A stretch of 64,000 nucleotides of DNA, taken from positions 1,426,001 to 1,490,000 of the forward strand of contig JAQFWX010000006.1 of NCBI GenBank assembly GCA_027605045.1, in the 5' to 3' direction. The notes under the pieces were generated by a model. The model did not search any database. It was not told where the DNA came from and saw nothing but the letters and a program-made list of their open reading frames with translations. Each line of letters opens with the position of its first letter. The first letter of the stretch is position 1. A program made the translations under genes and the position numbers. The DNA comes from Phallus indusiatus. Its lineage: Eukaryota; Basidiomycota; Agaricomycetes; Phallales; Phallaceae. This document shows positions 26,905 to 54,648 of the stretch, piece after piece.

Positions 26905-27153
26905 TACAATGTGAGACGAAATCAGAACTACATCTTGTGCATCCCGAAGTAAGCAATTACTTCGTACACTGTCTTCAACCGCATTTAATTTTATAAACCG
27001 CTTACGAAAGTCGATTTGGGCTGCTTGTTTTGTCAGAGACCTCTTTTGATAATTTAGACGATCACTTAATTGCATGTCTGGAACAAGTATCACTAATTTA
27101 GTTAGTCGTTCGCTTGGATATCAACACCTATATCTTCCCTATAAAATACACCG

Positions 27154-31453: not shown

Positions 31454-31689
31454 GATTATATTCTTGATGTTTATTTATCATCGTAAGCAATGACAGTTTC
31501 GTCTTATCGTCATTTTACTTGATGCTAAAGTTACTTTCAGGTCCCGACGCTTAGTCTGGGCGCCGTTGACTATTGTATAATACGTTGATTTTAGTCGACT
31601 GAATGGTTTTCAACAACATGACTGTGTGATCCATGCGCGACGTTTTTTTTTTTGGCACCCCCCTTCAGAACCACCATCTGCACCGAAAC

Positions 31690-33342: not shown

Positions 33343-33660
33343 ACGTTTTCTAAAAACTCAACGACATAGTAAGTAATGGACGTTAATAACTTTTGTCTAG
33401 TTATTTCGATTTTACAGGGAATTTCTTTGCAGATAAACTCGCTTGATTTGGATACGCAACAAGGCTGTTCGTCCAAAATAATTATGAAGGAAGAGGAAAG
33501 GAAGAGTGAAAAAAGGGAAATGTTGTTGCAGTATGATGGCGGATGTCGAAGAGTTTTTATGGAGTAGCAGGTTGATCAAACCCCACTGTATAGCTTCCTT
33601 AAACTACAATCTACAAAATATCCAATGATCTCTGGCAAACAAGGTCTTGTATTCTAATTG
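33343..33660. other. Intergenic between convergent genes
   Basis: Short spacer between the F-box pseudogene (+) and STS1 (-). It contains a GTAAGTAATGG...TTTTACAG segment resembling the 3'-UTR intron seen after other array members. Confidence 0.45.
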
Positions 33661-34829
33661 TTACACAGCGGCACAATCTGAGTCTTCTAAATCGATCCAT
33701 AGGGACTCTCTGATCCTATCCCGTCTTGTTTCATCGCCGAGATATCTCATGCAAAGGAAACTCCAGTCTAAGTGCCCAATGAACCACATTTCAAGTCCTT
33801 CACAATAAGCCGCTACATCTTTATCCAATTTCGGGCCAAATGAGGGTAGGTTTGCTTTAGCATCCTGAAAGGTTTTGACGGCCGTAACGGCAAGGGAACC
33901 GACGTAATTCGCGGCCGTCTGAAAATCCATTCCATATTTCTTTTGGAGAACAATCAGCATATTATGTGTGTCTGAAGTTTTGTATTCATTCCCATAAGAG
34001 AATACGTCCTATTACAGAGAGCGTGATTAGGATTACACCAGAGGTCAACGAATTGATCAGGGTAAAATCTTACATTTGAGAGGCATACGAAGTCATTTGT
34101 GCAGTCTAGAATGAGACGCATCAACGGATGTGATAGCACCTCGTCAGGAAGTTCCATGCCCAAGCCGAACTCAATCAGAGCAGCAGCAGGAATCACACCG
34201 CCCGTAAGACGACGGTGATGAATATATTCATCGAGAGAGGGAAGATACCCTGATACTCGATTCTCAGCTTGTTTCTTCATAGATTCGATGACCTCTTTGA
34301 TGAGGGAGACCATTCGAGTTTTCCAGCCTTCCGCTGTAGTATGAAGGCAAACTCGAGCCCACCAACTTAAAAAATAAGTAAGCGTCTTTTCAAAGAATGA
34401 TATCACTTACTCTCTGATCAATGTCACAGCAAGCAGCTCATCGGTGGGACTTGAATCCAAATCGAACGCCTTCGAAAAATTAGCCTCAAATGCTTGAGCT
34501 TGGTGGTCATCCATGAGATCCAACAAGTCATCAATTATAAATAGAATCATCAGGAAATCCGATATGAGCTTCAATGCCGAACGAGAGGTCGCGGGAGGAT
34601 AGACCTTTGCCGCTAATTCTCCAGCGGAACATTTGAAGGCAGTTTTCAGTATAGCAGGCGGGGCTTGTGATTTTGCAAGTGTGTTGAACCACTCGCGAGT
34701 CTCATGAGAGACGAGATCACCGTCTTTATGATAACCCGGTGTTGGAAAAGGACACATCTTCCAAAAATCGGGAAAGAAGAAGCCGTGAGCATTAGGCTGG
34801 GATGGCTTAGAAGTAGATACTGGAGACAT
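33661..34829 (-). CDS. Sesquiterpene synthase STS1 (352 aa)
   Basis: Exons: 34411-34829, 34074-34365, 33661-34008; introns 45 and 65 bp. The product is a class I terpene cyclase that would ionise farnesyl diphosphate with Mg2+. Metal-binding motifs are D100-D101-L-L-D104 (FIIDDLLD) and the NSE triad N237-D238-V-F-S241-Y-G-N-E245 (NDVFSYGNE), with the NSE motif split by intron 2. A C-terminal RY pair (WSFLCMRYLG) also fits the family. Length is typical of single-domain fungal cyclases, and there is no signal peptide. The first Asp motif is DDxxD here but DExxD in STS2/STS3, and overall sequence is very different, so STS1 belongs to another clade and probably makes a different skeleton. The product cannot be named from sequence. 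Confidence 0.93.
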
Positions 34830-37306
34830 TGAATGCTGCGTTCGTCAACGAAGACTTATTGTAAATGTGAGGTTAAAAAGACTTCTTATATATATTCGCG
34901 GTGCCACTGGTCTTGTGATTGTTTTTTGAGGGTCAATATTGAACGTCATGGATCTTCGTGAAATCCGACCGAAACATCTATTCCCTTCACATCAGTGTCT
35001 ATACAGGTGAGGGATAGAACCTTGCTGCTGATTCAGAATGAAATGTTGGCAATCGTTTACAAACAGTAGTTTCCGTACCAATGATGGGCCCGGCGATGTA
35101 CAGTTCCCGGCGTACAGCCCCACTGACAGTGCCAACATTGAAGGGTGAACAGGGACCCGAGATATTTGCACTTTTAGCCATACGCATATTTGAATAATCC
35201 GGATGTGTCAATTGTATCTGGCAATTATTGAGCGAGGTCCCGACGTCAATCCCCATACCCATGGTAAGAAGAACGAGGCTCAATCCCGCTTCTTCACGGA
35301 ATTGAGACATCAGAGAATGTTTATCATCAGCTTCAAAGAACCACTCGAATAAACATTTAGAGGTCGGGACACTGAGGTGAGAGGGGATGACCCTACAACG
35401 CTCAGCTCATCTGAATTGGATGAGAGGGATGAACAATTTCGCTTAAGTACCAGAGACTGCTCTAATTGGAAAACATTTTAATAGAGACATCTCAAACATC
35501 AACGTGTTTGATCACCGAACCCTGGACGAAAATTCTTGTGCCGTGAGTTTAGAGATTTTACCTGGCACTAGGTCTGTACCAGGTATGCCGGAACCTTGAA
35601 AGCATCCCAAGGCCATCACTAATTACACAGCTTCACCTGTTTACAGTGTGATTACAATCGAGGATTTGAAACATGAGAAATTAACTGAGAGAGATGTTGG
35701 AATTTGCAGTCTCGCGCGTCAACAGACGCACCCACAACAGTCCATTCCCATCTCGCCGTACCGGACTATTTTTCATTTATATTTTTCCACGGTCATTCTT
35801 CTTATATACTTTGTATTCGATATTTGAGTACTTCAGTTGTTTCCCACAACTGAAGTTTTACTTCGTTTATTCAGATTCTAGAAGAGATAGGTTAAACCGA
35901 GTGTGCGTACCTTTGGCACAATGCTTAGTCGGGATCATGCAGGAAAATCACGCGAACGAGCCCATATCTACACCTCGTCGGAGCCTCAGAAGCCATACCA
36001 TGCGAGGAAAAAATCGGCTGATATTACTTCTTAGCACATATTTAACGAATACAGCAATAGATTCCTAGTGTAAGTCGATGCGGGAGGTAGTCAGGAAACC
36101 CCCAGGTTCAAATCGCGCTGAACACCGCTCAGGAGAAGTTAAGCGGCGTCAATCAACGAAAAACCTGCAGTTCATAGATCATTAGCTCACTGTGAGAAAG
36201 AATTAGTAAGAATTTCAACAGGCAGCCAGATGTGTTTTTCTGGACGGTGTGGTACGGCGTGTCACGAGCGCTCCGCTGTTTGCGGCACCGGTAGCTGGAA
36301 ATCTTTCCTTGCAGTTTCTTTCAGTACTTCCATTGAACCAAAGGAAACAACGGCGAGCTATTCACGAAGTTTTCGGATTCTAAGGTATTAGAAAGTTGGC
36401 TATTGGTTCGACACGCCGAATAGGACTTTCCCAGCCTAGGCCTAACGCAACCGGGGCCGAGACCGACGGCTTCCTTCGACGTTTGTTGTTAGCAAGCGAA
36501 TTCATATCGCCGTTGTTTTTGTCAATGCGGGAGGATGGAGCTGGGAATTGAAGCAGACGCTACCATCATGCACCTAGGAGAGTCACAATATAGACTACTT
36601 GTCAAGCTTGGCAACGTCGTGACGTCAAACCAGCGTAGGCTGCGCGGGCGCTCTGACTTCAAGCTCCGATGTGCGTTTTCGCTGCGAAGCCTGCGATCAT
36701 CATCCAACGAGTCTTAACATCTAAATTGTTACATAGAAACATACCGATGTATAGTTGAAATTTGAACAACTCGCAAGGCCTAAGTAAGGTACGTTATGTT
36801 CCTCTTACACCGTCGGAGTTAACAGGTGCTGTTACTTCTGATCCAGACCAACTGTGAACCTCTTTTCATAGTACGCGTTTTCAAATAACACTCTCGGATA
36901 TGCCGTACCTTTTGATCATACACTCAATACGGAACATGAAAAAATGCTCTCCCTTGTTTTACCTAAACAATTAGGATCCTTGCGCTTGAACTTATTTGAA
37001 TGGGCTATCGTCGCTTCAGGCTGATAAAGATCGCTCTTGTCTCTCAGACGTCGCAAAACGCATGACGGTGATTCACTGGATCTCAAGCTTGCCATTCACT
37101 CTGTCTTTGTCCTAAACGTAACGTCGTTCATTTTTTCCTTCAACCTTTCCTTCGTGTCTCGACTACTTCTATCCATTGTTTGCCAAACATTGCACGCACT
37201 GTCACTCGCTGATGTCTGTGTACTTCTCTCTCTTTTTTGCTTCACAGACTGACGCAGTCCGAATTTGTAGTGTTGAAATCTAAAATAATGTACCTTTCGC
37301 CGACAT
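34830..37306. other. Intergenic 2.5 kb, nothing recognised
   Basis: It holds the STS1 promoter at the left edge. ORFs at 34999-35310 (-) and 35694-36068 (+) have no recognisable domain or supporting splice structure. A GGTTCAAATC motif near 36105 resembles a tRNA T-loop, but no cloverleaf forms. Confidence 0.5.
34886..34894 (-). promoter_or_regulatory. Candidate TATA box of STS1
   Basis: TATATATAA on the minus strand, about 57 bp upstream of the STS1 ATG. Confidence 0.45.
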
Positions 37307-39427
37307 CTAACTGCTTAGTGCCTCCAGAATCATATTTTCCGGAAGTCTCCTTCTCAGTGAAACCTTGTAGGAAGGAGGGAAGCTACGTCAAATAATTAGC
37401 GGTAAGCGGTAAGTAGCCATGATTACTAGAGTCACGAACCTAACCATCGCGTTCGTGTATTCTAGATGGGTCTCGGTAGTAATTGGTCTTCCTTGCTCGT
37501 CAATGGGATTTACAATCTCGTAAGCCGCGAGGAGGTGTGCTGCCATAATCCAGAGCGTATCAAAGGCCATCACTATTTTGTGCAACGGAGGCGATTAGTA
37601 TCGATTCGTACTAAATGACGAGGACCTGATCACTTACAGTGTCCGGGACATTTTCGTCTACCAAAACCAAACGCCAAGACCATCTCGGGAAGGTCCTTGA
37701 CACTCCCGTCTTTTTTCAAAAATCTTTCAGGTCTGAAATGATTGGTATCAGCGCCGAATATTGTTTCGTCTTGAAGGATAGCCCAAAGGTTCGGTATCAT
37801 TATGGAGCCTTTTGGGATAGAGTACTCCTCGTAGAAGTCTTCTTTAGTGCAAAGATGATAAATCGCGAAGGGGGTTACAGGATGCCAGCGCAAAATCTCA
37901 TAAACGACAGCGGTCAGATAAGGCAATTCAGTGACGTCCGAGAATTCTGGGAGACGATTTCCTTCTAAGACGTTATCAATGAAACCTCGAGCTTTTTTCT
38001 GAACTTTGGGATACAGTGCCATAGCCAACGTGAAGTTGAACAGCGCACAAACAGTTGTATCAGCGCCACCTAGTGGTGAGTTCGGTTTGGTTATCATTTT
38101 TTTGTTTGGATATTGTAAATTGACGTACCAAGATAAGCATTTCCGAGCACATTACGGACGGTTTCTACTTCTTTAAGGTTGCTGGTATCACTTTCCTGAA
38201 CGGCATATAAGAGCTTGGACGCGACCGAGGGCACAGCAACGCCATCTTTCTATGACAATCCATGATTAATAACAGAATAGACCAATACAAACATGTTACT
38301 TGCGACTTGGCGTTTCACCTCCTCATAGGGTGCCATAACAAGGGCTTTCGCAAGCGGTCTTCCTTTCGCTGCCACTTTGTGAAATTGAATACCCGGGACC
38401 CACTTGGGAATATGTTTCAGGAACGGAAAAACATCCACTAAGGTATTTGACTTTAATCGCCTTATGCAAAAAATGGCAACAAAATGAGACGAAACCTAAA
38501 TAGCCACCCTTGGCGACGTCTGCAAAAATGGCATTTATCCCCTCGGGAGTTTTGATCAGGGGATGGGAAACGTCAGTTGGCGTAATGCCATAGGTGATTG
38601 ATAATATAGCATCTGCGGCAGCTCTTAAATGATATCGGAAAAGTTAGTCAATGGTTCTTTCAATACAATCGTAAGGTTACCTACAGTCGTAAATCACTCT
38701 GGTGATCAGTCGATGTCAAGAGACGACGCAATAGTCTACGAGCGGCGTTGACTTCATGGCGCTTATTAGTGGTGCTCGCATCGATCGAGTCAAATTCTCG
38801 ACGAAATATACGACGGTGTTCTAAAACACGTGAGTGTTAGAGAGGGAAATTAATGAAATATATGCCTGCCCTTCCATTCGTCATTATAATCCATGAAAGG
38901 AATGATCCACTCGGTTCCGATTCTATTCAATATAATTAAACTCAGGAATCCCCAGCGTATTTTCGTCATGAAGAACCCACAAATCATTTAGCATGGTAGA
39001 CTTTGGCCTGTTTTAAAGAAAGGTATTCTTCTCTTAACCAGTAGAACTTTATCTCATTACCTATCGGAATAGATACCCGCTCGTCTGACAAGTAAATCCT
39101 CTATTACCTTAGGCGTGTTCAGAATAAACATACGAACACCTGGGACTTTTAGGCTCAGAATATCAGATTCTTAATCAAGACATAAAATTTTGTCATAAAT
39201 CAGTGTACTGTGAAATATAATTGTAACTTACTATATTGTTCGCTCCATTGTAGGTACACCTTCCACGATTCTCGTCGCGGAAGGTCGAATATATTACCCA
39301 ATACTGGGAGCCCAGGAGGACCTGGAGGAAAACTTCGACGTTTACGATATATCCATGGAAGTGTAATAATCACCACTACTATCAGTGGGATGACCGTGCT
39401 GCTAGAGTTAATAAGAGCAGGTAGCAT
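37307..39427 (-). CDS. Cytochrome P450 monooxygenase A (514 aa)
   Basis: Eleven exons: 39232-39427, 39061-39169, 38981-39007, 38870-38922, 38685-38820, 38496-38623, 38304-38437, 38129-38249, 37638-38069, 37440-37572, 37307-37382 (1545 nt). An N-terminal ER anchor (IPLIVVVIITLPWIY) precedes the hinge PPGPPG (34-39). The I-helix oxygen site is GGADTT (302-307), ExxR is E359-R362, PERF is RPERF, and the heme loop is FGFGRRKCPGH with Cys442 as the iron ligand. All core motifs are intact. The type resembles fungal O-methylsterigmatocystin-oxidoreductase-like P450s, common in mushroom terpene clusters. Two introns use GC donors (38821-38869 and 38250-38303). The probable role is hydroxylation of the sesquiterpene scaffold. 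It is a paralogue of P450-B, with many shared exon lengths. Confidence 0.93.
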
Positions 39428-40766
39428 TGTGAATGGCTAAGGAGAAGGATAGGACGCCTAAAAATGGGGAAAGCAGATATGTTTTTTTTTTACGAATCCT
39501 CGTGGTCCTTCAGAAGAACAACTGGTTTGTGGTTTAGTCAGGGGCACTTACTGCTCATCAATCATATCGAAGGCTTCCGGCAATGTCCGATGAATAGGTG
39601 GTGCGGACCAACCACGCCGGAGCCGGAGAAGAAACCCAAATAGAGTTAGTTGCTAGTATCCCTCCAAATCACGGGGAAAATCTGAAATTGATATGTCTCC
39701 GTTCAACGGATGTTCGTCATCGTCGAGTAACTAGTCCTCAAAAATAATAAAAAATCAGATAATTTAGGATTAATCCGGAACCAAACTTATGACCAAAGCG
39801 CTCTGGTGGATAATTTAAATATTTACCAATGACTAGAATCCCCTTGGGGCTTTATCCATCGATTTCTAAAGCGAATATACTAAGCGACAAATTTGGCAAG
39901 GTACCATTCAAGTATCATGGCTGTGGATCTTCTTCAAATTGATCATTGAAACAAGAATTCATTTAGCCAGCTCGTAAAGGATCTTCTATCTAAAAATAAT
40001 CATCAGAAAACCCCAAGAGGACTGAAAGTAGATGGAGCCAAGAGAGCCTGATCTGTTTTGCTGATGGGCGGCAAGAAGCCCACAAATTTCTGAATTAGGA
40101 GTTTTATTAATCCCTGGAAAACTTTGAAGACGCCGATGGGAACTAAATCAAAGGCAATTACGAAAGAAGTTTCTTGATTCTTCGCATTCTCCGTAACACC
40201 TATCAAGCCCCAAGACGAGTCCACATCGCCATAGTGAAGATTTAGCCCGTCACGCGTCAACGCCTGCGTCTTCTGATTGATTTTATTACACCCGTTTGCA
40301 AATACTTTCCCCGGTTAATTTCGCTTTCCACTCAGCTTATCATATTATAAGCGAGGTTAGGCGAGAAACCTATTTTGCAAACGACTATGATTCACTTTAC
40401 GATTGCAAAAAATCTGGCGTTTCTGTGAACATATTACTATAATACATAAGCGTTTCTTTCATCATAAAATTTTTTACGTTTCAAAGCATTCAGTGAAGCA
40501 AATTCCAATCTTTCCTATTAGATATTGACGTTTGAATCGTTCGAAGATAACATCCTTTCGTCGCTTATTTGATGAAATTCGATTGTACACCCGTAGGATT
40601 CACATCGTGTTTTAGTTCAGAATTATTATCACAATGAAGCTCTTTTCAGCTTCAGTCTCAACCACTGACTGATCTCGGAATGTATGCATACATAATATTC
40701 TATTAAAAATGGAAATGCTGAAATAGGAAGCTCTTCGTTCACAGAATCTTTCATAATTTGAATTGA
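39428..40766. other. Intergenic between STS2 and P450-A
   Basis: No gene seen. It contains the P450-A promoter side and the STS2 3' flank. Recognisable islands of similarity to 52130-53079 show it was part of the duplicated block. Confidence 0.55.
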
Positions 40767-42022
40767 TTATTCCTTCAAAGCAACAGATCCCTCAAAGGGT
40801 GCCTTAAGTTTGACAATTCGGGTCTCTTTTACGATGTTATTCTCCGAACCAAAATACCGCGTGGTTGCGAAACTCCACCTGTGAAATTCTGTTGATGACG
40901 AGGCCTAAGTGGAATGAATTTCTCAAACTTACGCGTCATTGCCTCGAACCCAGTCTCCAAATGCCTCCAGGCATCTCACCGCGTCTTGAGAGAAAATATG
41001 ATCTTCACGACAAGAAAGTACGTATATCGCATCTAGGAGTTGAAAGGTAAGGGCCTCGCAGTAACCAGCAATGAAGTCGATAGCCGTTTGTAAGTCCATT
41101 TTTTTAGACTTCATAATCACTGTTACGATATTAGCGGCAGCATGGCCTTTCGCTTGCTCCATGTTGTACGAGAACAGATCCTAAAACAAGTTTACGGCTT
41201 TGAACTTTCGAATACTCGAAAGACTTACATTTGCCCAAAATACTAGATCCATAGCAGCGTTGTATCCGTTGATAAACACAGGATCCGTATGAACCTCGTC
41301 GGGAAGGTCGAGATCAAGGCAATATTCAACCAGATCGAAGCATGTTCGAACAGCACTGATTTCACGACGAAGAGCAATATAGCGGGGAATGTTGAGGACT
41401 TGATTTTTTTCACGTAGCTCAGCTTCAGTTCCAACAACTTCTGTGTACTTGCAGAAGTTTTTGATAAAACGACTAGCCACGTTCGGTCCACACTTTTGGA
41501 TATGGTTGAGGTAGAAACTGAAGGTAAGGTTACTGTTCGTATTAAATTAAGTCTTGTTATACTGGATAACGTACTCTCGCATCATATGACAAATCCATGT
41601 ACCGTCGTCATATTCTGGATTTGAAAGTGTCTCGCGTACAATGAGCGCCGCCTTTGCTGCATCTTCGCCTGTCTGAGTATCAGTATACTCGTCGTAAAGC
41701 CATAAAATGTTAGCCTTGAATCCAATCAGTGAAAAGGGTAACGAAAAAGAGGATTGAAATAACATACGAGGTCCATAGTTGCCCTGAGACCAGGAGGTTG
41801 AGCGTACGGATAAACATACGCGTTAGACAGTTCGAAATTACAGTTGTCCATGAAGGCTCGCATTTTGGGACCACAAACTTGTTCGGTATATTTCGTGATC
41901 CACTCTCGAGACTGAGGGCGACATATGTAGTAATTAGAGTTAAAGCCGTTATCAGGAAAAACCGAAAAGGTTTCGTGCAAAAGGGGGAGACGAAAGGTCT
42001 GTGGATGTTGAGGGAAAATCAT
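40767..42022 (-). CDS. Sesquiterpene synthase STS2 (347 aa)
   Basis: Exons: 41768-42022, 41575-41714, 41229-41517, 40933-41180, 40767-40878 (255, 140, 289, 248 and 112 nt); introns 48-57 bp. Class I terpene cyclase acting on farnesyl diphosphate. Motifs are D93-E94-Y-T-D97 (WLYDEYTD), N228-D229-L-F-S232-Y-N-M-E236 split by intron 3, and R318-Y319 (ATTRYF). The N-terminus has the family pattern of short aromatic-rich helices (NPYA-like AYVYPYAQP). No transit or signal peptide. Exon lengths are identical to those of STS3, with closely similar protein, so the two are recent duplicates. It is divergent from P450-B across a 1.4-kb shared upstream region, which suggests possible co-regulation. Confidence 0.93.
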
Positions 42023-43436
42023 GAAAAGATACCAAGGATAAAGGCGTCAAAGTGGTGAGGCTAAATTACTAGGCTAGTACTAGCAATTGAATAGAAGTTT
42101 CGTAAATTCGTTGCACCACCGAGCTAACAAAGTCCTTTATGTATCGATGATGCTCTGGATTCTTCCTACTTTCACTCGAAACGAAACAGCGTGCTGTGAT
42201 AAGATAAAATCAAAAAACACAAATTCTCTCGTTCTCTTACCGTTAAAAGGTTGGCTTATGAGCGTTATCTGTGCTCTCGGGCATATATCGCCGGTACGGT
42301 TTCCGGATCAGTACCCCATTTTGTGTTCAGAAGAAAGAAAATATCACTTATTTCATCCCACAAGCTAGAATATTTTTCACGTTACCCGTTCCTTGAAAAT
42401 CAAAAGGGTGGGGTATCATGATGAGTCGTTATCTTACACAGTCATGTATTAATAATATTTCGGGGATGATGATAAACTCGGATTCGGTTTTTTTTTTTTT
42501 TGAACTTTCACGGTTTATTCTCCTAATATGAAACACTCCAAACCCAAATTTAGGACTTAACCGTTTACAGATTACCCCCCTGAAATGAGTACAAGTACTT
42601 TAACGCGTCGTATTCGCCGGTGCCAATCAGTGAAATAAAAGTTTATCCAGGCAACTCCTAGAAAACCTTTAATAAAAAAAGATCATCTGAAGACACAGAA
42701 CACTGGGAGTACATGGAGAACCCGATCCGTTTTGCTGATCAGTCCGCTTCGGTCTAAAAGTACTTGTGCAATTCTGCGTGTTTCAAGTCAAAACGGGCTT
42801 TGCGACGTGGTTTCTATATAAGCGCCAACGGATTCAGGAATCAGGACCGAAAGGTGCGGAAAGTCTAACAGCGATTCCGCATACAAAAGTTTGACAGGAA
42901 AGACAGCATAAACAATTAACTATCCTTAATTTTTCCCTATTATCACAACACACTTAAGGTGACTACCAATAAGCATCAGTAACGACGGTTTACTAAATTT
43001 AGGTTGTGAGCCAGGCACGATGTTGAGTCGGTGATGCCGCGGCCTGACGCGGACGCCAGCAGTAGTCTAGGCTGCAACGCGCTTAATATTGCATGTGAAT
43101 TTCACATTCCTTATGTAATTTCAATTTTTTCCCTTCTTCTCTCATATTATCTGGATCCTTTTTCTTTTCCCTATTGGGGTTTTTATATGTGATTGCACAA
43201 ATGAATCATGATATTTCCAAGTTCGATTACCCACAGCGCTAATCCAGTAGATACTCAGAAGTCATGCACGCCTCGATAGCACTATGCTGACAACATTTGT
43301 GGCTCACACCAAGCTCGCACATACTCGCGATCCCCGGAATAGAGAAAAAGAGAGATACTTTGATTCAGACGAAAAGTGAAAATCCTCAGTGTTTTTTTCT
43401 CTCCCTTACTATCGCTCTCTGTCTCAGTGTCTCGTC
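42023..43436. other. Divergent promoter region STS2 / P450-B
   Basis: 1.4 kb between the ATGs of two outward-facing cluster genes. No gene. A T-run occurs at 42489-42501. The STS2-proximal part is shared with the upstream region of STS3. Confidence 0.5.
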
Positions 43437-45544
43437 ATGTTTGAAGCCATTTCATCCTCCAAACCTCGCTTCTTTTCAATTATACATGACAGAGTGGGTG
43501 ACTTGCCTATTCAATCGCCCGGTTGGATAGTAGTGTTCGTGGTTATTTGTATTGCATGTTCAAAAGTATTCCGTTCCAAACCCATATATCCTCCTGGCCC
43601 CCCCGGTATACCTTTGTTTGGCAATCTCTTCCAGTTGCCATCGCACGAGTCTTGGAGGGTCTACTTACAGTGGTCAAAGAACCACAGTACGTCTGTTGAC
43701 ATCGTATCATAAACATAGTTCTCATCACACTACTAGACAGTGATATTTTGAGTTTGAAATTCCCCGGTACTCGTTTTGTCATCCTCAATAGCGCAAAGGT
43801 CGTGCAAGAACTGCTCGTTAAACGCAGTAGTATTTACTCAGATAGGCCTCGCTCGACACTTCTCTATGACCTGTATGTCCTTCAATTACAAAGTATGCTA
43901 TTCATCACTGACCAGAAGTTCAGAATCAAGACCGGTTGGCTGATCGTCTTCATGAACCAAGACGAGCGCTGGAAGTTGCATCGACACATATTTCGCCGCG
44001 AATTTGACACGCGCGAAGCCACTGCTGTCAATCGTACCCATGAAGTTCAGGCAGCAAGAAGACTTTTGCGTCGCCTCTTGAACAGTAAAGATTACGAGGG
44101 CGAGCTCAGACTGTAAGACATTTTTCCAACTTCAACATACAGCATCCTCTTACAATCTTACCTATAGCGCTGCTGTTGATTCAGTTCTCTCGATTACATA
44201 TGGAATCACACCCACCAGCTTTGAACATCCTTTCATTCAAGTTACTGAGGCCGTCAATGCAATTTTTGCGGACGTCGCAAAAGGGAGGTACCTAGGTGAG
44301 CTGGCTTTACAATGACAAAATGAAGAAGGTTGTGAAATTTTATTCAGTCGATATTTTTCCATCGCTGAAATATCTTCCCAACTGGACCCCTGGCGCCACC
44401 TTCTGGAAGGTCGCAAATCGCGGGAAGCCTTTGGCCAAGTCTGTTGTTACTGGACCTTACGCTGAAGTCCAAGCTAAAGTGGTTTGTACCTTCCTCTTCG
44501 CTATTGTCTATACTATTTTCTAAATTCCATATCTCAATAAGGATGATGGTACTGCTCTTCCTTCAGTTGCATCGCGCTTTCTTTCGATGTTGCAGGATGG
44601 AGAAAAATTTGCTGCAGATGAAGTTGAAGCCACTCGAAATGTCCTCGCCAATGCCTACCTAGGTATTGTATCTCAATTCTTATTATTTTTTTTTGAACCT
44701 ACCTTAATCTCCCCTCATCGCTAGCGGGGTCCGATACGGTACGTTATTATGACCTGTCACCCAACTTGCAGATGACATTAACATCCATTCTTCAGAGCAT
44801 TTGCGCCTTGTATAATTTCGTCCTCGCTATGGCCGTCTACCCCGAAGTCCAGAAAAAGGCTCAAAAAGACTTGGATGCGGTACTTCAAGGTCAACGTCTT
44901 CCCGACTTCTCGGACTTTGAGAAGCTACCTTACCTTGCTGCCATGGTCAACGAAGTCTTCAGATGGCAAGCTGTAACGCCTTTCGCAGTATATCACGTTT
45001 CTACTGCCGACGACGTTTACGATGGCTACTTTATCCCGAAAGGCTCAATTATCGTTCCCAACGCTTGGGCTATTCTACGTGATGAGACAATTTTCGGTCC
45101 GGAGACGGATAGATTCATGCCGGAGAGGTTTTTGAACCCCGAAAAGACAACAGTCTGCGATCTATCTGAAGTTGATATGGCCTTTGGATTCGGAAGACGT
45201 GCTTGCCCGGGCAGATGTCAGTAAATTTTCTGGTCAATTTTCATCCTTTGCTAAATGAAATATGATAGTTATCGCTCGGGACACCATTTGGATAATGGCT
45301 GCTTCGATCCTGGCTGCATACAACATTTCCAATGCGATGACATTGGATGGAGAGTTGATCACTCCTGAAACTAAACTTGAATATACGAACGCTATGATAA
45401 GGTACGATCCTATTTCAAGAAGATTCACATTAAATCTAATGTCACGCTTTCAGTTTTGCTCCTCGATTTACAATCAGCTTCACCCCTAGAATTCCTGAAA
45501 GTGTGATTCAATATGGCGTCAGTCATGAAGATATCAGTAATTAG
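43437..45544 (+). CDS. Cytochrome P450 monooxygenase B (538 aa)
   Basis: Ten exons: 43437-43686, 43737-43872, 43924-44112, 44168-44295, 44348-44481, 44542-44662, 44725-44738, 44796-45216, 45269-45401, 45454-45544 (1617 nt). Start is the ATG at 43437; the membrane anchor (WIVVFVVICIACSKVF) sits about 20 residues later than in P450-A. The hinge is PPGPPG. The I-helix A320-G-S-D-T324-S325 is encoded partly by a 14-nt exon. ExxR is E377-R380, followed by PERF and FGFGRRACPGR with heme Cys461. Exons of 128, 134, 121 and 133 nt equal those of P450-A, while the A-specific intron after IYSDR and its GC-donor intron before the HRRIF-type block are absent. It is probably a second oxygenation step for the terpene product. 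Confidence 0.92.
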
Positions 45545-46898: not shown

Positions 46899-48315
46899 TC
46901 AAGCTTTCCCAGCATGGGGGAGAATGGGACCAGCGTAAGGAGCACGATCGTGCTCCGAGATCATGTTGAGGATATCAATGGTTTTGGTTCCATCGCCCTG
47001 TAGGAAAGAAAAAAAAAGAACATAAAATGATTCTTTTGCAAAGATTTCTGAAGACGTACGCAGACGTTGTGAGGAAAACCAAGGTCGAAGGGTTCAATTG
47101 AGTCCAAAAATTGGAGCTGTTCTTCCGAAAGTCTTATCTTCAGCGCCTGAATATTTGCGTGAAGATGTTCGGTCTTCCTTCCACCAATGATAGGGAAGAC
47201 GTAAGGAGCCTTGTGCAATACATAGGCAATAGCAACAGCCGGAACGGCCCCTTGATCCAGCCCTAATTGCGCAGCGACTTTCTGGAGGGCTCTAGAGTAC
47301 TTCTTCTCTTTTTCGGTACGCTTCCATCCGTTGTTATCGATTTTGAGATCACGGCCCTGTTCACCTGACTTTTCGCGACGTTCCTCTTCTTCGTCAGAAC
47401 GAAGCTTTCCCGACGCAAGAACGTTCCAGGCACAGATTGCCATACCGTGTTCGCGAGCCATGGGGATAATATCACGCTCAAAGGCGCGGTCCATAATGTT
47501 CCAAGAACCCTGATAGACTGCGAAAGGGGTGAGCCCATGATCGATGGCATACTGATTGCATTGGGAAACAATCCAAGCAGGACTGTTGCAAATGCCCTTC
47601 ATTTGATTAGACGTCAGAATCTTCCCAGCAAAAAAGGTTGAAAACATACTAGATATAGAACCTTTCCTTGTTGGATGACTTTGTGAAGGTTGTTCATGAC
47701 CTCTTCTACAGAAGTCTCCCAGTCCCAGCAGTGTACATAAAGGATATCGACGTAATCGGTGCGCAGATTCTTCAAAGATTGATTCAAGGAGTTGAGCAGC
47801 GACTTCGCATTGTTACCGTGGTAATTGATCTTTTGTGGAATAGAAGGATCGCCGACTTTGAAGTTGAATGAATACTATGATTTGCGTCAGCCACAGTGTA
47901 CTAGCGGAATCAACAGATGCAGTCTCTATACGCTTACTTTGGTAGCAATGACCATTTGCTCGCGATTCTTGCGATTTTCCATCCATTCACCAATGAACTG
48001 TTCAGAGGTACCGCTCTGACTATCATCGTAAATCAATCAATCAATATGTTCGTCTCTCGTAGATAGCCAAGAGTCCGGCTAGACTTACTAGTTGTTGGCG
48101 GTATCGATGAAATTGCCACCAGCATCGTAGAAGGCATCTAAAAGCTTGAAGCTCGATGTCTTGTCCATTTTACCCATTCCAATGTGCTGCCAGACGTCTC
48201 CGATGCTCATACCGCCCAGGACGAGTGGAGATACATGGATCGCAGCTTTTTTGGAAAAGGGACGATAGCGACCGAGAAGGGTGGGGGCAGCAGGAGCAGG
48301 AGGGTAGAAAGACAT
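46899..48315 (-). CDS. Aldo-keto reductase, aryl-alcohol dehydrogenase / norsolorinic acid reductase type (389 aa)
   Basis: Exons: 48089-48315, 47938-48019, 47650-47874, 47060-47596, 46899-46997 (1170 nt); introns 53-69 bp. Start is MSFYPPAPAAPTLLGRYRP, as in this fungal family. Catalytic tetrad: D71 and Y76 (FIDTANNY), K103 (IATK) and H151 (ILYVHCWDW). The strand GKVLYLGICNSPAW is recovered only with the 47597-47649 intron, which supports that boundary. Cofactor-site sequence VFPIIGGRKTEHL is near the C-terminus. The enzyme would interconvert an aldehyde or ketone and an alcohol with NADP(H). Its place between P450-B and the flavin oxidase suggests it reduces a carbonyl made by P450 oxidation, as AKRs of this type do in other fungal clusters. 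It is not closely similar to the membrane-tailed AKR at 13257. Confidence 0.92.
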
Positions 48316-49705
48316 GGTGAATGAATTTGTGGTTGCAAAACCCGCGAGCACTGCTTATGAGTTACATATACTACCGCTGTGATTAACCCTGCCCGGTTAG
48401 TTCCTGGCCAAATAACATGACTGAGCAAAAAAGGTTTTTCGAGAACTCCGACGCACCCTGACGCACCCCAAATTGTGAAAGTTTGGAAATTCAGATTCTT
48501 GCACCAAACACCAAAGATATTCAAATTGTGAGAAAGCTAAGTTTAAGTTGAGTTTAAGGATTACGTGGCTACGGCTCGCCCGCTGGCCACCGGCAAAATG
48601 TGACATGCATGTGACAACTTGCCATATACTCTCTGCTTCTGTTCTTCTAAGTTTCTAACCAGACGTTTTACTATTCCCGAATGTACAATGGTATAAATCC
48701 GAGATTCTTCCCACCAGATCGTGAAGGCTTTTCAACTTCTCATAGCGCCACTTAGATCATTAACCTGGCACCGGCGTTACGGAGCATTATCTCTCTGGGG
48801 TATATGTTCAGAAAACCAGAAACCAACGGCCAGAGCCTGGCAACTGCGAGTTCTTAACTGAAAATGAGCTTAACCCGGGGGAAATAACTCCAGGTTTTCA
48901 TTTTGGAGTACACAGCCAAGTCTTCCGAATCCGTAACTTCTTTTATGTGATGGAATAAGTGTGATATCTTTTTCTTTTTTTGGATACTAATTTTTTTTCC
49001 TTACATAGTCAACTTTCCATGTTTGAACTTAAATCGTATTTCCTCCGTTTCTCGGTCGTCTATTTGTGTGTTGACCTGAAAGTGAAGTAACTCCACCGGC
49101 TTAACAGTTGAAAGCGAGAATTGCGTAGCCTGGCGGCGTTGATTTCCCCTTGCGGCTAAGGATCTAAGGTTCATTTAAACCAAAAAAGGTGAAGTTAGCG
49201 CCTTCGTTCATTCATTAACTTATTTAGGCAACCTAGATTCTTCCGACACTGTTATGCAGCCCGAGCTGATGTCTGCGCTTTTTTGCGTGCCATGAACACA
49301 TTTTTATTTTTTGATGGTAACTCGTGGATATCCTCCACGGTGATATCGATTCACCTGTACCACCCAATAACTGACGCGTTTCCAATATATTCTTTTTACT
49401 TCTAAGGGGCCTGGATCACGAGAACAGATTAGGTTCTCCATCTACTTTCAAAGTCCTCTCGGGGGTCTTTTGATGATCATTTTTTAACGAAGGTTCTCCA
49501 GGAGTTACTTGGATGAACTCTTGTTTCACTGATCATGCTAGGAAATTTTCATGTAAGATTTGAAATATGTGGACTCTGTGCTATCCTATCGTCGCTAGTT
49601 CGAGCAAGTGGAGAAGTATAAGAACAGCAACAAAATCCAGTCCACCATTGTTATCAAGTTTCAACTCATTCTGTACCGGCTCCAAGCCTAGAGTTAAATT
49701 GCGTC
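48316..49705. other. Divergent promoter region AKR / FAD oxidase
   Basis: 1.4 kb between two outward-facing genes, no gene seen. A TATA-like AGTATAAGA lies at about 49614-49622, roughly 85 bp before the oxidase ATG. Confidence 0.45.
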
Positions 49706-51599
49706 ATGAAGACCTTCGTCTTATTGTCTTCTTTCGTTCTCTCAGCTCTTGCTTCATCTTCAGTTCTTCCTGCCCTTAATCCGCAGCAAAATGCTCAAAA
49801 AGCCTGTTCTTTGTTGAAATTAGCCTTTCCCAACTTAACGTTCTTCCCCGGTTAGACTGCCACTGTATTTGTTTCTTATCACGCGCGCTAACACGCATCA
49901 CGAAGGCTCATCCCAATATGCTTCTGATATTGCTCATTTTGAGTTCTCCAGCACCCAAAATGCAACATGTAGCGTAGAGCCAACTTCTCCAGAAGATGTT
50001 AGCACTATCGTAAGCGTATTTGGCACTCATCCGTGTTACAATCTCACCAAGAAAAATGTAGCTGAACATCGTGGGTCGTTCTGATATACGCTCCCCCTTC
50101 GCGGTAAGTTTTCACACGTTGCTTGTTAGACATTTGTACATGGCCACTAACATTCACCTGCAAAGGTCAAAGCTGGTGGCCATGCTACCAACCATGGTTT
50201 CAGCTCTACGACTGGTGTTCAAATTTCCATGACCAACTTCAGAAATACCACATATGACCCCGAGACTAACACCGTTACACTACAACCCGGAAAAACATGG
50301 GACCAGATTTATGCTGATCTTTCCGCATTCAACGTGACTGTTGCAGGGGGTCGCGTTCCTGGTGTCGGCAAGTTTCTGTTTTCCCACGCCTTCCAAACTT
50401 TTCGCTCTTGTTCTCATCTCTGTCTTTTCTCATATAGGCGTCGGTCTTTCTCTCGGTGGGGGTTACAGCTGGATCACCGACCAAGTCGGTTTGAGCATCG
50501 ATAACATCATTGCTGCCGACCTTGTTCTCCCAAATGGAACATTCATTCATGTCACGGATGCGAGCAACCCCGAGCTCATGTTCGGTATCCGTGGTGGCCT
50601 CAATAACTTTGGTATCGTCACTACTTTGACCTTTAACGCCATCCCGATTGGAGATTTCTGGGTAGATATGGTAGTTCTTGCTCACCTACATGAACATGCT
50701 AACCGGTTGCTTCGATATTAGGCTGGTGTCATAGACTACGATCCTACCGTTCCCGAAGTGCACGACCAAATCATCCAAGCCATTGAGAACTTTAGCTTGA
50801 ATAATACGAATACCAAAGCTCAGATTGCTGCGGCCTATGTCAACACCAATGGAACTGTAAGAATTTTCACATAATTTTTTTTCTTTCTCTGACGTATTTA
50901 CTTTGTACGATTACAGAACATCTGGGAGCTCATTTTCAGTCATTCTGAACCTCAAGTTCCAGATGTTTTTCTGCCTTTCCTAAACATTTCCAACATCTCC
51001 AGCGACGTCGGTACTCGTTCTTTCGTCGATTTCATATCTATTGTTAATCCTATTAATCCGTACGTTTTTTGAAACTATCGCGTCAAACCGATATTGAATT
51101 TTTGTAATTTTCAAGTGATGCATTCTCTCGTGCTTGGTCCAACATGGTCCCCATCCTCAAATACACAGAAACGGTTCTCCTTGCTATCGAAGACAACGTC
51201 AACGCCGCCTTCGCAGCAGCAGTCTCAGACGGAAGATCCATAGACACTATTATTCTTGGAGTCGAACCTTTCTTCGGGGCAAATGATCATAATTTACCCT
51301 CCGCATTCCCTCACCCAGCTTCCCGTCCTGTTACGCCTTGTAACCCTTGGATGATATATTCCAACCCGGCCGACGACACTTACTTTAACACAGCATTGTT
51401 AAACATTTCCAATCAGATTCAAGCTGTTGCTGTTGCTCAAAACCAAAGTAGTTGGGACGACATCCGTTATATTAATTATGTTCTCGAGAACACACCTTTG
51501 GAGCTTTTATACGGCTCCAACTTACCTCAGTTACGCACTCTGCAGCAAGCCATCGATCCCAATAATGTTATGGGTTTAACTGGTGGTTTCAAGCTTTAA
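49706..51599 (+). CDS. Secreted FAD-linked oxidase, BBE type (492 aa)
   Basis: Exons: 49706-49850, 49906-50009, 50062-50103, 50166-50367, 50438-50661, 50722-50856, 50917-51059, 51116-51599 (1479 nt). A signal peptide (KTFVLLSSFVLSALASS) starts the protein. The PCMH-type FAD domain shows PEDVSTI, VKAGGHATNHGFS with His103 at the position that carries covalent FAD, VPGVGVGLSLGGGYSW and GIRGGLNNFGIVT. The C-terminal BBE segment has the late IDPNNVMGL pattern. The usual second flavin-linking Cys is not seen in the PGVGVG turn, so attachment is probably through His only. Such enzymes oxidise alcohols or carbohydrates with O2. Intron 4 (50368-50437) has a GC donor (GTCG|GCAAGT). It is placed inside the terpene cluster, but a secreted enzyme may act on exported product or be unrelated. 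Confidence 0.9.
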
Positions 51600-51790
51600 T
51601 TGAGATAATTTCGATATTTATCTAAAGTTATACATATGTATCTCTGATTTTTCGAAATAATAGTATTCTCTTGCTCGTTCAGTTTTGCCTGGGTCGTAAA
51701 ACGGTTACCTCCTTTATAGTAATAGATGAAATCGATATCGTGTTCGGTTAATCGGATTGTCTACAGCAATACTGTAATTAATAATGCAAC

Positions 51791-51960
51791 CTTGCTCGAC
51801 ACCGAGAATATGCCATGGAAGTGTCATCCGTCGACCGAGTCAACCGGAAGTTGAGTAGGACTGTCCTTCTCCGGACACTGTATACGTTTAAGGTCGTTAT
51901 CCAAAGCTGGGCAATGAATATACATCTGTAAAGGATATTCCTCTTTGCCGTCTATCAACG
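51791..51960 (-). pseudogene. Relic of an F-box gene 3' end
   Basis: This strongly resembles the last ~140 bp and the 3' flank of the F-box gene at 55707-57362 (shared GAGTCAACCG, CTTCTCCGGACAC, GTTATCCAAAG-TGGGCAATGAATA and ACATCTGTAAAGGA). The coding frame is not maintained. It ends abruptly where P450 sequence begins at about 51961. Confidence 0.82.
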
Positions 51961-52135
51961 CACCTTCCACGACGCATCGTTACTGGAGGTCGAATATATA
52001 CCCAATACTGGGAGTCCGGACCTGGAGGAAAACTTCGACGTTTACAATAGATCAACGGAAGTGTAATAATCACGACCACTGTTAATGGGACGATTGCGCT
52101 AGAGTTGACGAAAGCAGATAGCAGAGCGAATGGTT
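51961..52135 (-). pseudogene. Relic of P450-A exon 1
   Basis: On the minus strand this reads VVIITLPLIYCKRRSFPPGP, matching the P450-A anchor and hinge, then loses frame after PPGP because of small deletions. Upstream flank similarity (GGTTAAGGAGAAAGGTAG against GGCTAAGGAGAAGGATAG) continues, so the copy includes promoter DNA. It is the left part of segmental duplication copy 2. Confidence 0.85.
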
Positions 52136-53079
52136 AAGGAGAAAGGTAGCACGTCCGAAAATGGAGGAAAGCGGATACCTTCTACCTTCCTTTTTTTACG
52201 AATCATCGTAATTAATCAAAACCGATGTGGTGTGCAAGTATTAGTCAAGGACCACCATTTATTCGCCCCGGTAATATCCGAATCGTCCGATGTATATGGC
52301 TGTGCGCCGGACCAGCGACGGAGCCAGAAGAAACTCCGAATAGAGTCAGTCGGTCTTCTCAGCTGCGAATTTTTATTAACTACTTTTTGCAGACTTGAAG
52401 CCACAGCGCTCTGGTGAGGGAATCTAACGTCGCTTGATTGCCGATTAATCTCCTTGGAGCTTTGGCTTTATCCATTAATGGCTCCGGAGAATGTATTAGC
52501 AATGAAAATTCTGGCAAGGCGTCATAGTATGACCGGGGATTTATCTTCAAAAGTTCCCAAAACTTTGAATTACAAGTTATATTACCTTCAAAGACCGAGG
52601 GCCTCGCCTAAAGACGCCAATGAAGAGTTAAAGAAAGTAAGAAGAAAGTAAGAAGATGCTTGGCTCGTTCGGCCCTCGGTGATCGTCAGAATAGGGCCGT
52701 TCTATGTTGTTTGGCTGTTCATTTCGACATCATTTACTATAGTAAGCTATCTCTTCCGGAAGGTTTCTCACGCCTTAAACCAAAAATCAAATTCTCGTGA
52801 CTGCCTAGGCATTGATATTGATATTTACATCAGTGTTTTGGACAGTGGTTATTGAAATTCGACCACGCGATTTGGTTGTACACCCGTGCCTTCAGTTCAT
52901 ACCGTGTTCTCGTTGTTCAATCACAGAGTTATTAGCATAGTGAAGCTCTTTCCGGCTTCAGTTTATCAATGATCATTTTGACAATAATCAGAGCTCGCAA
53001 ATGCTTCAGAGACATGCTAAATTATGCGTTTTCACATTTTTTAAAAGGTAATTAATATTTTATTTATATAATAATATTA

Positions 53080-54648
53080 TTATTCTTTCAAATCAACAGA
53101 TCCTTCAAAGGGAGCTTTTAGCTTTACGATTCGAGTCTCTTTTACTATGTTGTTTTCTGAGCCAAAATATCGCGTAGTTGCAAAACTCCACCTATAAAAA
53201 GATCGTCGGCCAAGGAGTTCTAACGTCATGAATTTTGCGAACTTACGCGTCATTGCCTCGAACCCAGTCTCCAAACGCCTCCAAACATCTCACCGCGTCT
53301 TGAGAGAAAATAGGACTTTCACGACAAGAAAGTACGTATATTGCGTCTACGAGTTGAAAAGTAAGAGCCTCGCAGTAACCAGCAATGAAGTCGATAGCCG
53401 TTTGTAAGTCCATTTGTTTAGACTTCATAATGACCGTTACGATATTGGCCGCGGCATGGCCTTTCGCTTGCTCCATGTTGTACGAGAACAGATCCTAAAA
53501 CAAGTTTACGACTTTGAACTCTCGAATCTTCGAAAGACTCACATTTGCCCAAAATACCAGGTCCATGGCAGCGTTGTATCCACTGGTAAAAACAGGATCC
53601 TTATGAACCTCGTCGGGAAGGTCGAGATCAAGGCAATATTCAACCAGATCGAAACATGTTCGAACGGCGCTAATTTCACGACGAAGTGCGATATAACGAG
53701 GAATATTAAGGACTTGATTTTTTTCGCGTAGCTCAGCTTCAGTTCCAACGACTTTTGTGTACTTGCAGAAGTTTTTGATAAAACGACTAGCCATGTTTGG
53801 TCCAAACTTTCGAATATGATTGAAGTAAAAACTAAAGATAAGGGGGGTGATGGATTAGCGGTACCATCACCGGGGGGTGTCTCTGATTATGTCAGGGGTG
53901 TCCTTCATCCGAATGTGAGTTCGAATCCCCTCACACACGCCGCTATGTAGGCCTCTGTTACCGCAGAGCGGAGTTTTAGTGGGTATTGGGGACGAGTCCC
54001 ACACTACCTACCTAGGTGTGCCTAAATGCATTTCTCCGCTCGGTTAGTTAGGGTAGTGGACCGAGTTGACAAGGGGTGTCAAATGACACTCTCGCTCGAA
54101 AACTATCTTTAAGCTCCACCAAAAAAAAAAAAAAAAAAAAAAAAACTAAAGATAAGATTATTGTTCGTATTTAGTCTTATTATACTAAATAACGTACTCT
54201 CGCATCATATGACAAATCCATGTGCCGTCGTCATATTCTGGATTTGAAAGTGTCTTGCGTACGATGAGAGCGGCGTTTGCTGCATCCTCGCCTGTCTGAG
54301 TATCAGTATACTCGTCGTAAAGCCATAGAATGTTAGCCTTAAAAAACCGAGTCAGTCAAGGGGGAAACGAAAAAGAGGATTGAAATAACGTACAAGGTCC
54401 ATGGTTGCCCTGAGGCTAGAAGGTTGGGCGTACGGATAAACATACGCGTTAGACAGTTCAAAATTACAGCTGTCCATGAATTTTCGCATCTTTGGACCGC
54501 AGACCTGTTCAGTATACTTGCTGATCCACTGTCTGGATTGGGGTCGACACATGTAGTAATTAGGATTAAAGCCATTATCGGGAAAAACAGAGAAAGTTTC
54601 ATGCAAAGGGGGAAGACGGAAGGTCTCTGAATTTGGGGTAACGACCAT
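53080..54648 (-). CDS. Sesquiterpene synthase STS3 (347 aa), SINE in intron 2
   Basis: Exons: 54394-54648, 54198-54337, 53543-53831, 53247-53494, 53080-53191 (255, 140, 289, 248 and 112 nt, exactly as STS2). The ATG at 54648 gives MVVTPNSETFRLPPLHETF. Motifs are DEYTD at 93-97, NDLFSYNME at 228-236 and RY (TTRYFG) near the end; all metal-binding residues are kept and there is no stop. Substitutions relative to STS2 are spread along the protein (for example VARASRF changed to MASRF context, TDPVFING to KDPVFTSG), so the product could differ. Intron 2 is 366 bp in place of about 52 because of the SINE. Activity depends on use of the distal acceptor at 53832; the proximal duplicate acceptor near 54146 would retain SINE sequence. 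Confidence 0.88.
53843..54145 (+). mobile_element. tRNA-derived SINE with poly-A tail
   Basis: About 300 bp with a head containing a box-B motif (GAGTTCGAATCC at 53917-53928), a box-A-like GGATTAGCGGTACC near 53852, a unique body, and a 3' poly-A run (about 54121-54145). It is flanked by a perfect 16-bp target-site duplication, AAAAACTAAAGATAAG, at 53827-53842 and 54141-54156. No ORF; it would be mobilised by a LINE reverse transcriptase. It is absent from the same intron of STS2, so it inserted after the duplication. Confidence 0.92.

What the first reader, a model, noticed from the sequence alone, without database searches (positions are those of the whole stretch)
33661..54648. Sesquiterpenoid gene cluster with three cyclases, two P450s, a reductase and a flavin oxidase
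STS1, P450-A, STS2, P450-B, AKR, BBE-type oxidase and STS3 lie within 21 kb with no unrelated intact gene between them. Cyclase plus P450 plus redox tailoring is the known layout of basidiomycete terpene clusters. Having two cyclase clades together (DDxxD-type STS1; DExxD-type STS2/3) suggests more than one scaffold or a dedicated and a backup enzyme. I cannot match it to a named pathway.
Basis: partly seen in the sequence, partly recalled or inferred. Interest (0 to 1): 0.88.

Follow-up and report, generated by a model that had tools for sequence, protein, structure and literature searches.

The report
Likely viridiflorol gene cluster in mushroom
A stretch of fungal DNA holds seven intact enzyme genes that probably make the scent compound viridiflorol and then oxidise it, and the front end of one of its oxidase genes may explain an unexplained tail on a viridiflorol enzyme used in biotechnology.

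Summary
In detail: all seven genes have complete, stop-free spliced models with the expected motifs. STS2 and STS3 belong with clade II viridiflorol synthases: STS2 is 84% identical to Sphaerobolus M422DRAFT_47084, whose number matches the assayed viridiflorol synthase Sphst_47084, and 69% identical to Agr5. STS3 is a segmental copy of STS2 under strong purifying selection (dN/dS 0.08-0.11); a SINE-like insert doubles one of its splice acceptors. STS1 is a younger arrival from a tandem array on another contig; its family is far from anything assayed. The two P450s are each other's best match in the genome. The most informative result: the unexplained ~80-residue N-terminal extension of Agr5 resembles P450-A exon 1 of this cluster (best match in the whole genome, P450-B second), which points to an old synthase-P450 linkage; the match is modest (37% over 67 residues). 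Best reading: a viridiflorol (aromadendrane) synthesis-and-oxidation cluster. Products and co-expression could not be tested. A new member of a known kind.

The parts
33661..34829 (-). STS1, terpene synthase, 3 exons, 352 aa, DDLLD type; recent copy of the type found in the tandem array on contigs C34/C26
33575..36436 (-). approximate stretch (STS1 plus upstream DNA) with similarity to the C34/C26 array, in pieces; a short repeat found elsewhere in the genome lies inside at 35695-35856
   Evidence: 94% over 33575-35015 (C34), 90% over 33575-35689 (C26), 73% over 35884-36436 (C26)
37307..39427 (-). P450-A, 11 exons, 514 aa; exon 1 (39232-39427) is the best whole-genome match to the Agr5 N-terminal extension
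40767..42022 (-). STS2, terpene synthase, 5 exons, 347 aa, DEYTD type, predicted viridiflorol synthase
43437..45544 (+). P450-B, 10 exons, 538 aa; 57% identical to P450-A; divergent from STS2
46899..48315 (-). aldo-keto reductase, 5 exons, 389 aa
49706..51599 (+). FAD-linked oxidase (FAD_binding_4, BBE-like), 8 exons, 492 aa, His but no Cys at the flavin
53080..54648 (-). STS3, 5 exons, 347 aa, 91% identical to STS2; segmental duplicate
51961..52209 (-). remnant of a second P450-A 5' end (78% to 39257-39503), ending where a segment shared with 55679-55844 begins (51792-51962)
53843..54140 (-). SINE-like insert in STS3 intron 2, framed by perfect 16-nt direct repeats 53827-53842 and 54141-54156 that double the 3' splice acceptor; 32 of the 48 matches listed are to this insert
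39931..40068 (-). shared ~130-nt MITE-like element upstream of P450-A
42614..42744 (-). same element upstream of STS2
49410..49544 (+). same element upstream of the FAD oxidase, same sense relative to its gene

Best explanation
The locus is a small sesquiterpenoid cluster of an agaricomycete fungus. STS2 and its duplicate STS3 convert farnesyl diphosphate to viridiflorol (aromadendrane skeleton, 1,10-ring closure and water capture); P450-A and P450-B then hydroxylate that skeleton, and the AKR and FAD oxidase adjust the resulting carbonyl/alcohol groups. STS1 probably landed at the edge later and is not needed for the core pathway. Shown by computation: intact genes, family membership, closest assayed relatives, duplication history, purifying selection. 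Inferred: product of STS2/3 (about 0.85), P450 action on that product (about 0.6), AKR and FAD oxidase in the same pathway (about 0.45), STS1 outside it (about 0.75).
For: STS2's nearest database relative (84% over 98%; 83% over the full length) is Sphaerobolus M422DRAFT_47084, listed as Sphst_47084 with products viridiflorol and viridiflorene (matched by protein number). Agr5 (69%) also makes viridiflorol, and Galma_104215 (63%) makes beta-gurjunene. Tree: window STS2/3 with Sphst_47084 at SH-aLRT 99, inside a 16-row group at 100. STS2-STS3 dN/dS 0.08-0.11 with dS 0.40-0.54, so both were kept working. P450-A and P450-B are each other's best match by score (58-60% over the best exon), and no other P450 match listed exceeds 57% (84 of 519 candidates scored; 80 of 541). 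The Agr5 N-terminal extension matches P450-A exon 1 best in the whole genome (E 3.2e-7) and P450-B exon 1 second (0.002); on the spliced proteins the match stops about two residues past the exon 1 end of each, which suggests that the synthase-P450 pair is old. Bovistol cluster in Coprinopsis: the same four enzyme classes.
Against: No product, expression or synteny data. The third STS2-type gene (C162:1758573-1759822) has no P450 match within the 18 kb read, so the synthase also persists without the P450s. AKR relatives of 48-66% identity over exon pieces occur at several other loci, so it may be an unrelated neighbour. The FAD oxidase starts with a hydrophobic, signal-like stretch (by eye), whereas P450 products arise inside the cell. 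P450 N-termini are partly generic, and the extension match is only 37% over 67 residues.
Confidence: 0.55

Rival explanations
1. Only STS2/STS3 with P450-A/P450-B form the pathway; AKR, FAD oxidase and STS1 are unrelated neighbours brought together by duplication and insertion in a fast-changing stretch inside an F-box-like gene array.
For: The array flanks the cluster on both sides (7 of 13 open frames compared are related); STS1 is a recent import; the MITE-like element was found upstream of P450-A, STS2 and the FAD oxidase but not of the other four genes; AKR has relatives at several other loci.
Against: The FAD oxidase has no close second copy (next best by score 34% identity, others 24-40%) and carries the same upstream element as STS2 and P450-A; cyclase, AKR, FAD oxidoreductase and P450 together is a published combination.
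Confidence: 0.27
2. Two scaffolds are made here: aromadendrane by STS2/3 and a second skeleton, perhaps cadinane-like, by STS1, sharing the tailoring enzymes.
For: STS1 is intact with all three class I motifs; a seven-row profile of its family scores highest in the PDB against 7OFL, which is Copu9, a delta-cadinol synthase; Copu5 (P0056) is 33% identical to STS1.
Against: STS1 arrived recently (dS 0.08-0.11, dN/dS 0.30-0.48 against its nearest paralog). Its sisters on C34 have no P450 match nearer than about 90 kb among those listed (where 92 of 655 candidates were scored).
Confidence: 0.13
3. The locus is a decaying volatile-terpene locus: viridiflorol is released as such and the P450s act on something else.
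For: A solitary third STS2-type gene and two truncated P450-A copies; SINE-like insert on the STS3 splice acceptor.
Against: P450-A and P450-B are complete, no stops; the Agr5 extension points to a kept pairing.
Confidence: 0.05

Closest known systems
Sphst_47084, viridiflorol synthase of Sphaerobolus stellatus (clade II)
   Same: 84% identical to STS2, sister to STS2/STS3/third copy in the tree; viridiflorol and viridiflorene per the PMC10608071 table, expressed in E. coli per a PMC9501842 passage
   Different: Its gene neighbourhood could not be read here; identity of P0001 with Sphst_47084 rests on the protein number 47084
Agr5, viridiflorol synthase of Cyclocybe aegerita
   Same: 69% identical to STS2; its first 65 residues match residues 1-67 of P450-A, i.e. 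its exon 1
   Different: Agr5 carries that stretch in front of the synthase; here P450-A is a separate intact gene downstream of STS2
Proposed bovistol cluster of Coprinopsis strossmayeri (PMC7135263, passages seen)
   Same: Sesquiterpene cyclase, FAD oxidoreductase, AKR and P450 side by side
   Different: The cyclase there is a putative 1,11-cyclase; here clade II, with two P450s and three cyclases; no sequence comparison made
Copu5/Copu9, delta-cadinol synthases of Coniophora puteana
   Same: Nearest assayed relatives found for the STS1 family; Asp-rich, NSE and WxxxxxRY motifs shared
   Different: Copu5 is only 33% identical to STS1, and STS1's own 12-row clade holds no outside row in the tree
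CryA/CryB of Crossiella cryophila (passage of PMC11430642)
   Same: ent-viridiflorol synthase with a related P450
   Different: Bacterial; no sequence comparison made here

Membership tests
Basidiomycete sesquiterpene biosynthetic cluster | Intact terpene synthase with metal-binding motifs | tested here: met
   3 of 3 synthases
Basidiomycete sesquiterpene biosynthetic cluster | Adjacent intact P450 and redox genes | tested here: met
   P450-A, P450-B, AKR, FAD oxidase
Basidiomycete sesquiterpene biosynthetic cluster | Co-regulation of the genes | not testable with these tools
   no expression data; a shared upstream element at 3 of 7 genes is only a lead
Basidiomycete sesquiterpene biosynthetic cluster | One pathway product from the set | not testable with these tools
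   needs heterologous expression
Clade II viridiflorol synthases (STS2, STS3) | Groups with assayed viridiflorol enzymes | tested here: met
   SH-aLRT 99 with Sphst_47084, 100 for the 16-row group with Agr5, (quick tree, no bootstrap)
Clade II viridiflorol synthases (STS2, STS3) | Makes viridiflorol from FPP | not testable with these tools
   inferred from 84% identity
Copu5/Copu9-type delta-cadinol synthases (STS1) | Falls in one supported clade with Copu5/Copu9 | tested here: inconclusive
   own-genome group drawn next to P0056 (Copu5), P0054, P0055 with a midpoint root and flagged long branches; Copu9 itself was not in the tree
Bicovalent berberine bridge enzymes (49706-51599) | His and Cys both linked to FAD | tested here: not met
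   GGH present, the Cys of the best PDB relative aligns with Val; rule of two links recalled
SINE (53843-54140) | Target-site duplication, A-rich tail, many copies | tested here: met
   16-nt perfect repeat, run of T on the gene's strand, 32 of 48 matches at 71-100%
SINE (53843-54140) | tRNA- or other Pol III-derived head | tested here: inconclusive
   no Rfam match at E 1, no ARAGORN gene in the window; a B-box-like stretch seen by eye, consensus recalled

The most novel reading that the evidence does not exclude
The unexplained ~80-residue N-terminal extension of the biotechnology enzyme Agr5 is the first exon of a P450 that was once its cluster neighbour. The viridiflorol synthase and this P450 family have therefore travelled together since before Cyclocybe and the lineage of this fungus split, and P450-A/P450-B of this window are fungal oxidases dedicated to the aromadendrane skeleton.
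Probability: 0.45. Interest if true: 0.62.

Novelty: new member of a known kind. Interest (0 to 1): 0.5.

Why it matters
Aromadendrane-type sesquiterpenoids are reported from basidiomycete cultures (Cyclocybe, a passage of PMC6541320; Inonotus, a reference title in PMC8705726), but in the listings and passages of my searches I saw no fungal P450 assigned to that skeleton; the only viridiflorol-P450 pair met was bacterial. This locus offers two candidates next to a synthase whose product can be predicted. The exon match also gives a concrete, testable origin for the Agr5 extension, which a review calls a possible signal peptide and whose removal, combined with random mutations, tripled the yield: a P450 membrane anchor would fit.

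Tried and rejected
Rejected: STS1 as backup for STS2 (25% identical). Rejected: STS3 as a dead copy (full frame, dN/dS 0.08-0.11), with the reservation that the doubled splice acceptor may divert some transcripts to a 143-residue product. Second-haplotype copy of the cluster: searched with three stretches covering 17500-64000; none seen, although many other synthase loci come in near-identical pairs, so collapse, loss in the other nucleus or incomplete assembly cannot be told apart. The shared upstream element was first taken for a promoter motif; copies in unrelated surroundings and inverted-repeat-like ends make a MITE-like element more likely. A Pfam scan of ten frames around distant copies gave one LTR copia polyprotein, one weak sub-threshold match and no pathway gene. 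STS1 alone found 2 proteins in the database, one identical to an own-genome paralog (P0052 = C34:934883); an alignment reached 72. Enrichment of P450s near synthases was not computed, because only 92 of 655 candidates were scored. Structure prediction and fold search were not used. Gene neighbourhoods in Sphaerobolus, Cyclocybe or other fungi could not be read with these tools.
Full report
What is there. The window is C162:1426001-1490000 of an assembly of 67.2 Mb in 206 contigs. Hand-built splice models give seven complete genes with no internal stop: STS1, P450-A, STS2, P450-B, AKR, FAD oxidase and STS3, between 33661 and 54648. All seven match the expected Pfam family above the curated cut-off. 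The three class I synthase motifs are present in all three synthases, and both P450s have the haem-binding motif. The models hold 40 introns; 39 are 45-70 nt and one, STS3 intron 2, is 366 nt. Two introns use a GC donor (P450-A intron 4 and FAD oxidase intron 4, set by me in the script). A protein-to-genome aligner written here recovered the STS2 model exactly from STS3 as query.

Layout. STS2 and P450-B are divergent with 1.4 kb between their starts, as are AKR and the FAD oxidase; P450-B/AKR and FAD oxidase/STS3 are convergent. STS1, P450-A and STS2 lie on one strand. The cluster is set inside an array of apparently intronless F-box-like open frames: seven of the thirteen frames compared are mutually related (7941-, 23443, 25159, 27145, 29621, 31732 and 55710-; 31-60% identity), one of them with an F-box-like match below the cut-off (55710-57413).

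STS2 and STS3. The database search with STS2 gave 51 proteins; the nearest is Sphaerobolus stellatus M422DRAFT_47084 at 84%, then Mycena, Dendrothele and Clitopilus enzymes and Agr5 at 65-70%. The table of PMC10608071 (passages, part 1 of 2 of the table section) lists Sphst_47084, Agr5 and Denbi1_816208 as making viridiflorol and viridiflorene and Galma_104215 as making beta-gurjunene, all clade II. I match P0001 to Sphst_47084 and P0017 to Galma_104215 by the protein numbers in their names; which Dendrothele row is Denbi1_816208 was not settled. In a 61-row tree (3 window rows, 27 of the 35 modelled own-genome synthases, 31 database rows; quick method, SH-aLRT only) STS2, STS3 and the third own copy join Sphst_47084 at 99 and the Agr5 group at 100. 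I therefore predict viridiflorol for both.

Duplication history. STS3 with its flanks (53079-54988, in pieces) matches 40766-42411, and 51961-52209 matches the P450-A 5' end 39257-39503. A third copy lies about 290 kb away at C162:1758573-1759822 (0.945 protein identity to STS2), followed by a stretch that matches only the first ~60 coding bases of P450-A. In the 18 kb read there, tblastn with the seven window proteins at E 1e-5 hit only the synthase. So the unit copied was the synthase plus the P450-A 5' end, or the P450 copies were later cut. STS2-STS3: dN/dS 0.08-0.11, dS 0.40-0.54; STS2-third copy: 0.10-0.16, dS 0.17-0.25 (two methods). Both pairs show strong purifying selection.

SINE-like insert. 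In STS3 intron 2 an insert of about 300 nt is framed by a perfect 16-nt repeat (53827-53842 and 54141-54156), with a run of T on the gene's strand next to one repeat. Of the 48 matches listed, 32 are to this insert, 71-100% identical, several full-length ones at 96-99%. The duplicated 16 nt contain the 3' splice acceptor, so there are now two equal acceptors; use of the near one gives a product cut at 143 residues. STS3 output thus depends on the far acceptor in an intron about six times longer than the others.

STS1. A search with STS1 alone gave 2 proteins, one of them identical to an own-genome paralog. Its close relatives are a tandem array in the same genome: four close genes on C34 and three on C26, plus a more distant synthase beside each. 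Three fragments on one unnamed 16.8-kb contig (P0111, P0113, P0115) are 63-79% identical to STS1, so the family is not confined to this genome; they were not in the tree. The nearest gene is C34:937355 at 92% protein identity, dS 0.08-0.11. STS1 with about 0.2-0.9 kb upstream, and weaker pieces to 1.6 kb, resembles that array, so it was copied to the edge of the cluster more recently than STS2 and STS3 split. A seven-row alignment reached 72 proteins, apart from those named mostly other agaricomycetes at about 22-36%. In the PDB the profile scores best with 7OFL, which PMC9018054 gives as Copu9, a delta-cadinol synthase. P0056 has DDWSD, NDVFSYNKE and WSFETERY at positions 92, 227 and 309, exactly those printed for Copu5. 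A cadinane-type product for STS1 is a weak guess only; the clade labels of Copu5 and Copu9 differ in the table.

Tailoring genes. P450-A and P450-B are 57% identical over 514 aligned residues, and each is the other's best match by score outside itself (84 of 519 and 80 of 541 candidates scored). The next by score are 40%; a pair at C129/C186 reaches 53-57% over about 110 residues. The FAD oxidase has one copy, next best by score 34%, others 24-40% (21 matches, its own exons included). The AKR's other relatives are 48-66% over exon pieces at several loci; a fragment of AKR type lies just beyond the window end (C162:1490128-1490292).

The Agr5 extension. P0006 (Agr5) is 430 aa against 347. A review (PMC11430642, one section read) notes 80 extra N-terminal residues, suggests a signal peptide, and reports that truncation by 80 residues together with random mutations raised the product threefold. 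BLASTP of residues 1-95 against the seven window proteins gives P450-A 1-67 (37%, E 8e-11, 46 bits) and P450-B 28-85 (33%, E 6e-8); the best of 200 shuffles of the query reached 22 bits. In the whole genome, which holds a large P450 family (97 Pfam matches listed), residues 1-86 match P450-A exon 1 best (E 3.2e-7), then P450-B exon 1 (0.002), then C122:223943 (0.005) and weaker ones, 8 in all. There is no PDB match at E 10 and no Pfam match above cut-off for the extension. On the spliced proteins the similarity stops about two residues past the end of exon 1 of both P450s (exon 1 is 65 1/3 codons in P450-A and 83 1/3 in P450-B). The simplest reading is that Agr5 carries the first exon of a P450 of this very family, either truly spliced on or joined by the gene model. 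Either way such a stretch would lie in front of Agr5 in Cyclocybe. In a tandem array of [synthase, P450-A] units, of which cut-down traces remain here, a P450-A 5' end lies upstream of the next synthase, which is the arrangement needed. Against it: 37% over 67 residues in a region with a hydrophobic anchor and a proline-rich hinge is modest evidence, and I could not read the Cyclocybe locus.

Shared upstream element. About 130 nt are shared, in the same sense, upstream of P450-A, STS2 and the FAD oxidase. A profile found it at 11 places (12 hits) in the 309.5 kb read, 3 of them in the cluster, one upstream of the third STS2-type gene and one 0.1-0.2 kb upstream of an array gene of the STS1 family. 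Most other places were fetched because DNA searches had listed them, and two of them (C56:908 kb and C1:744 kb) are copies of one longer stretch, so 3 of 11 is not an unbiased rate. Near-mirror ends (by eye) and unrelated flanks suggest an old MITE. Whether it helps co-regulation is open.

Known or new. Cyclase, FAD oxidoreductase, AKR and P450 together are already proposed for bovistol, so the kind is known. New here are the assignment to viridiflorol, the two candidate aromadendrane P450s, the duplication and insertion history, and the exon match to Agr5. My literature searches covered open PMC papers only. I saw listings with the beginnings of abstracts, passages of eight papers (PMC10608071, PMC9018054, PMC9501842, PMC7135263, PMC11430642, PMC6541320, PMC8097960, PMC8705726), part 1 of 2 of one table section (PMC10608071) and one whole section (PMC11430642); no paper was read in full, and the original Agr5 paper was not seen.

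Organism. I infer an agaricomycete near Sphaerobolus only from the nearest relatives of STS2; it was not identified.

Noticed in passing
window 23443-32931 (+), 7941-9665 (-), 55710-57413 (-): Seven related, apparently intronless open frames of 400-610 aa (31-60% identity), one with an F-box-like match below cut-off, on both sides of the cluster; relatives recur along contig C162.
   Followed up: partly
L011-L015 (C34:924001-950000, C26:18001-36000): Tandem array of STS1-like synthases, four close genes on C34 and three on C26, apparently two haplotypes with a copy-number difference; few relatives in the protein database.
   Followed up: partly
window 39931-40068, 42614-42744, 49410-49544; L010, L012, L036, L037, L039-L042: MITE-like ~130-nt element with near-mirror ends; 3 of the 11 places found lie upstream of genes of this cluster in the same sense.
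   Followed up: partly
window 53827-54156: SINE-like insert whose 16-nt target-site duplication doubles the splice acceptor of STS3 intron 2.
   Followed up: yes
window 35695-35856: Short repeat with five matches at 94-100% on other contigs, inside the stretch that came with STS1.
   Followed up: no
C162 (window 17500-64000): No second-haplotype copy seen although many other synthase loci in the assembly come in near-identical pairs.
   Followed up: partly
G000, 74 PF19086 matches: About 45 terpene synthase gene places in the unphased assembly by my grouping of the matches; 35 of the 42 outside the window were modelled.
   Followed up: partly
window 63365-63823 (+): Open frame with a ubiquitin C-terminal hydrolase (Peptidase_C12) match above cut-off.
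   Followed up: no
C162:1490128-1490292 (L038): AKR-like fragment with one stop just beyond the window end.
   Followed up: no
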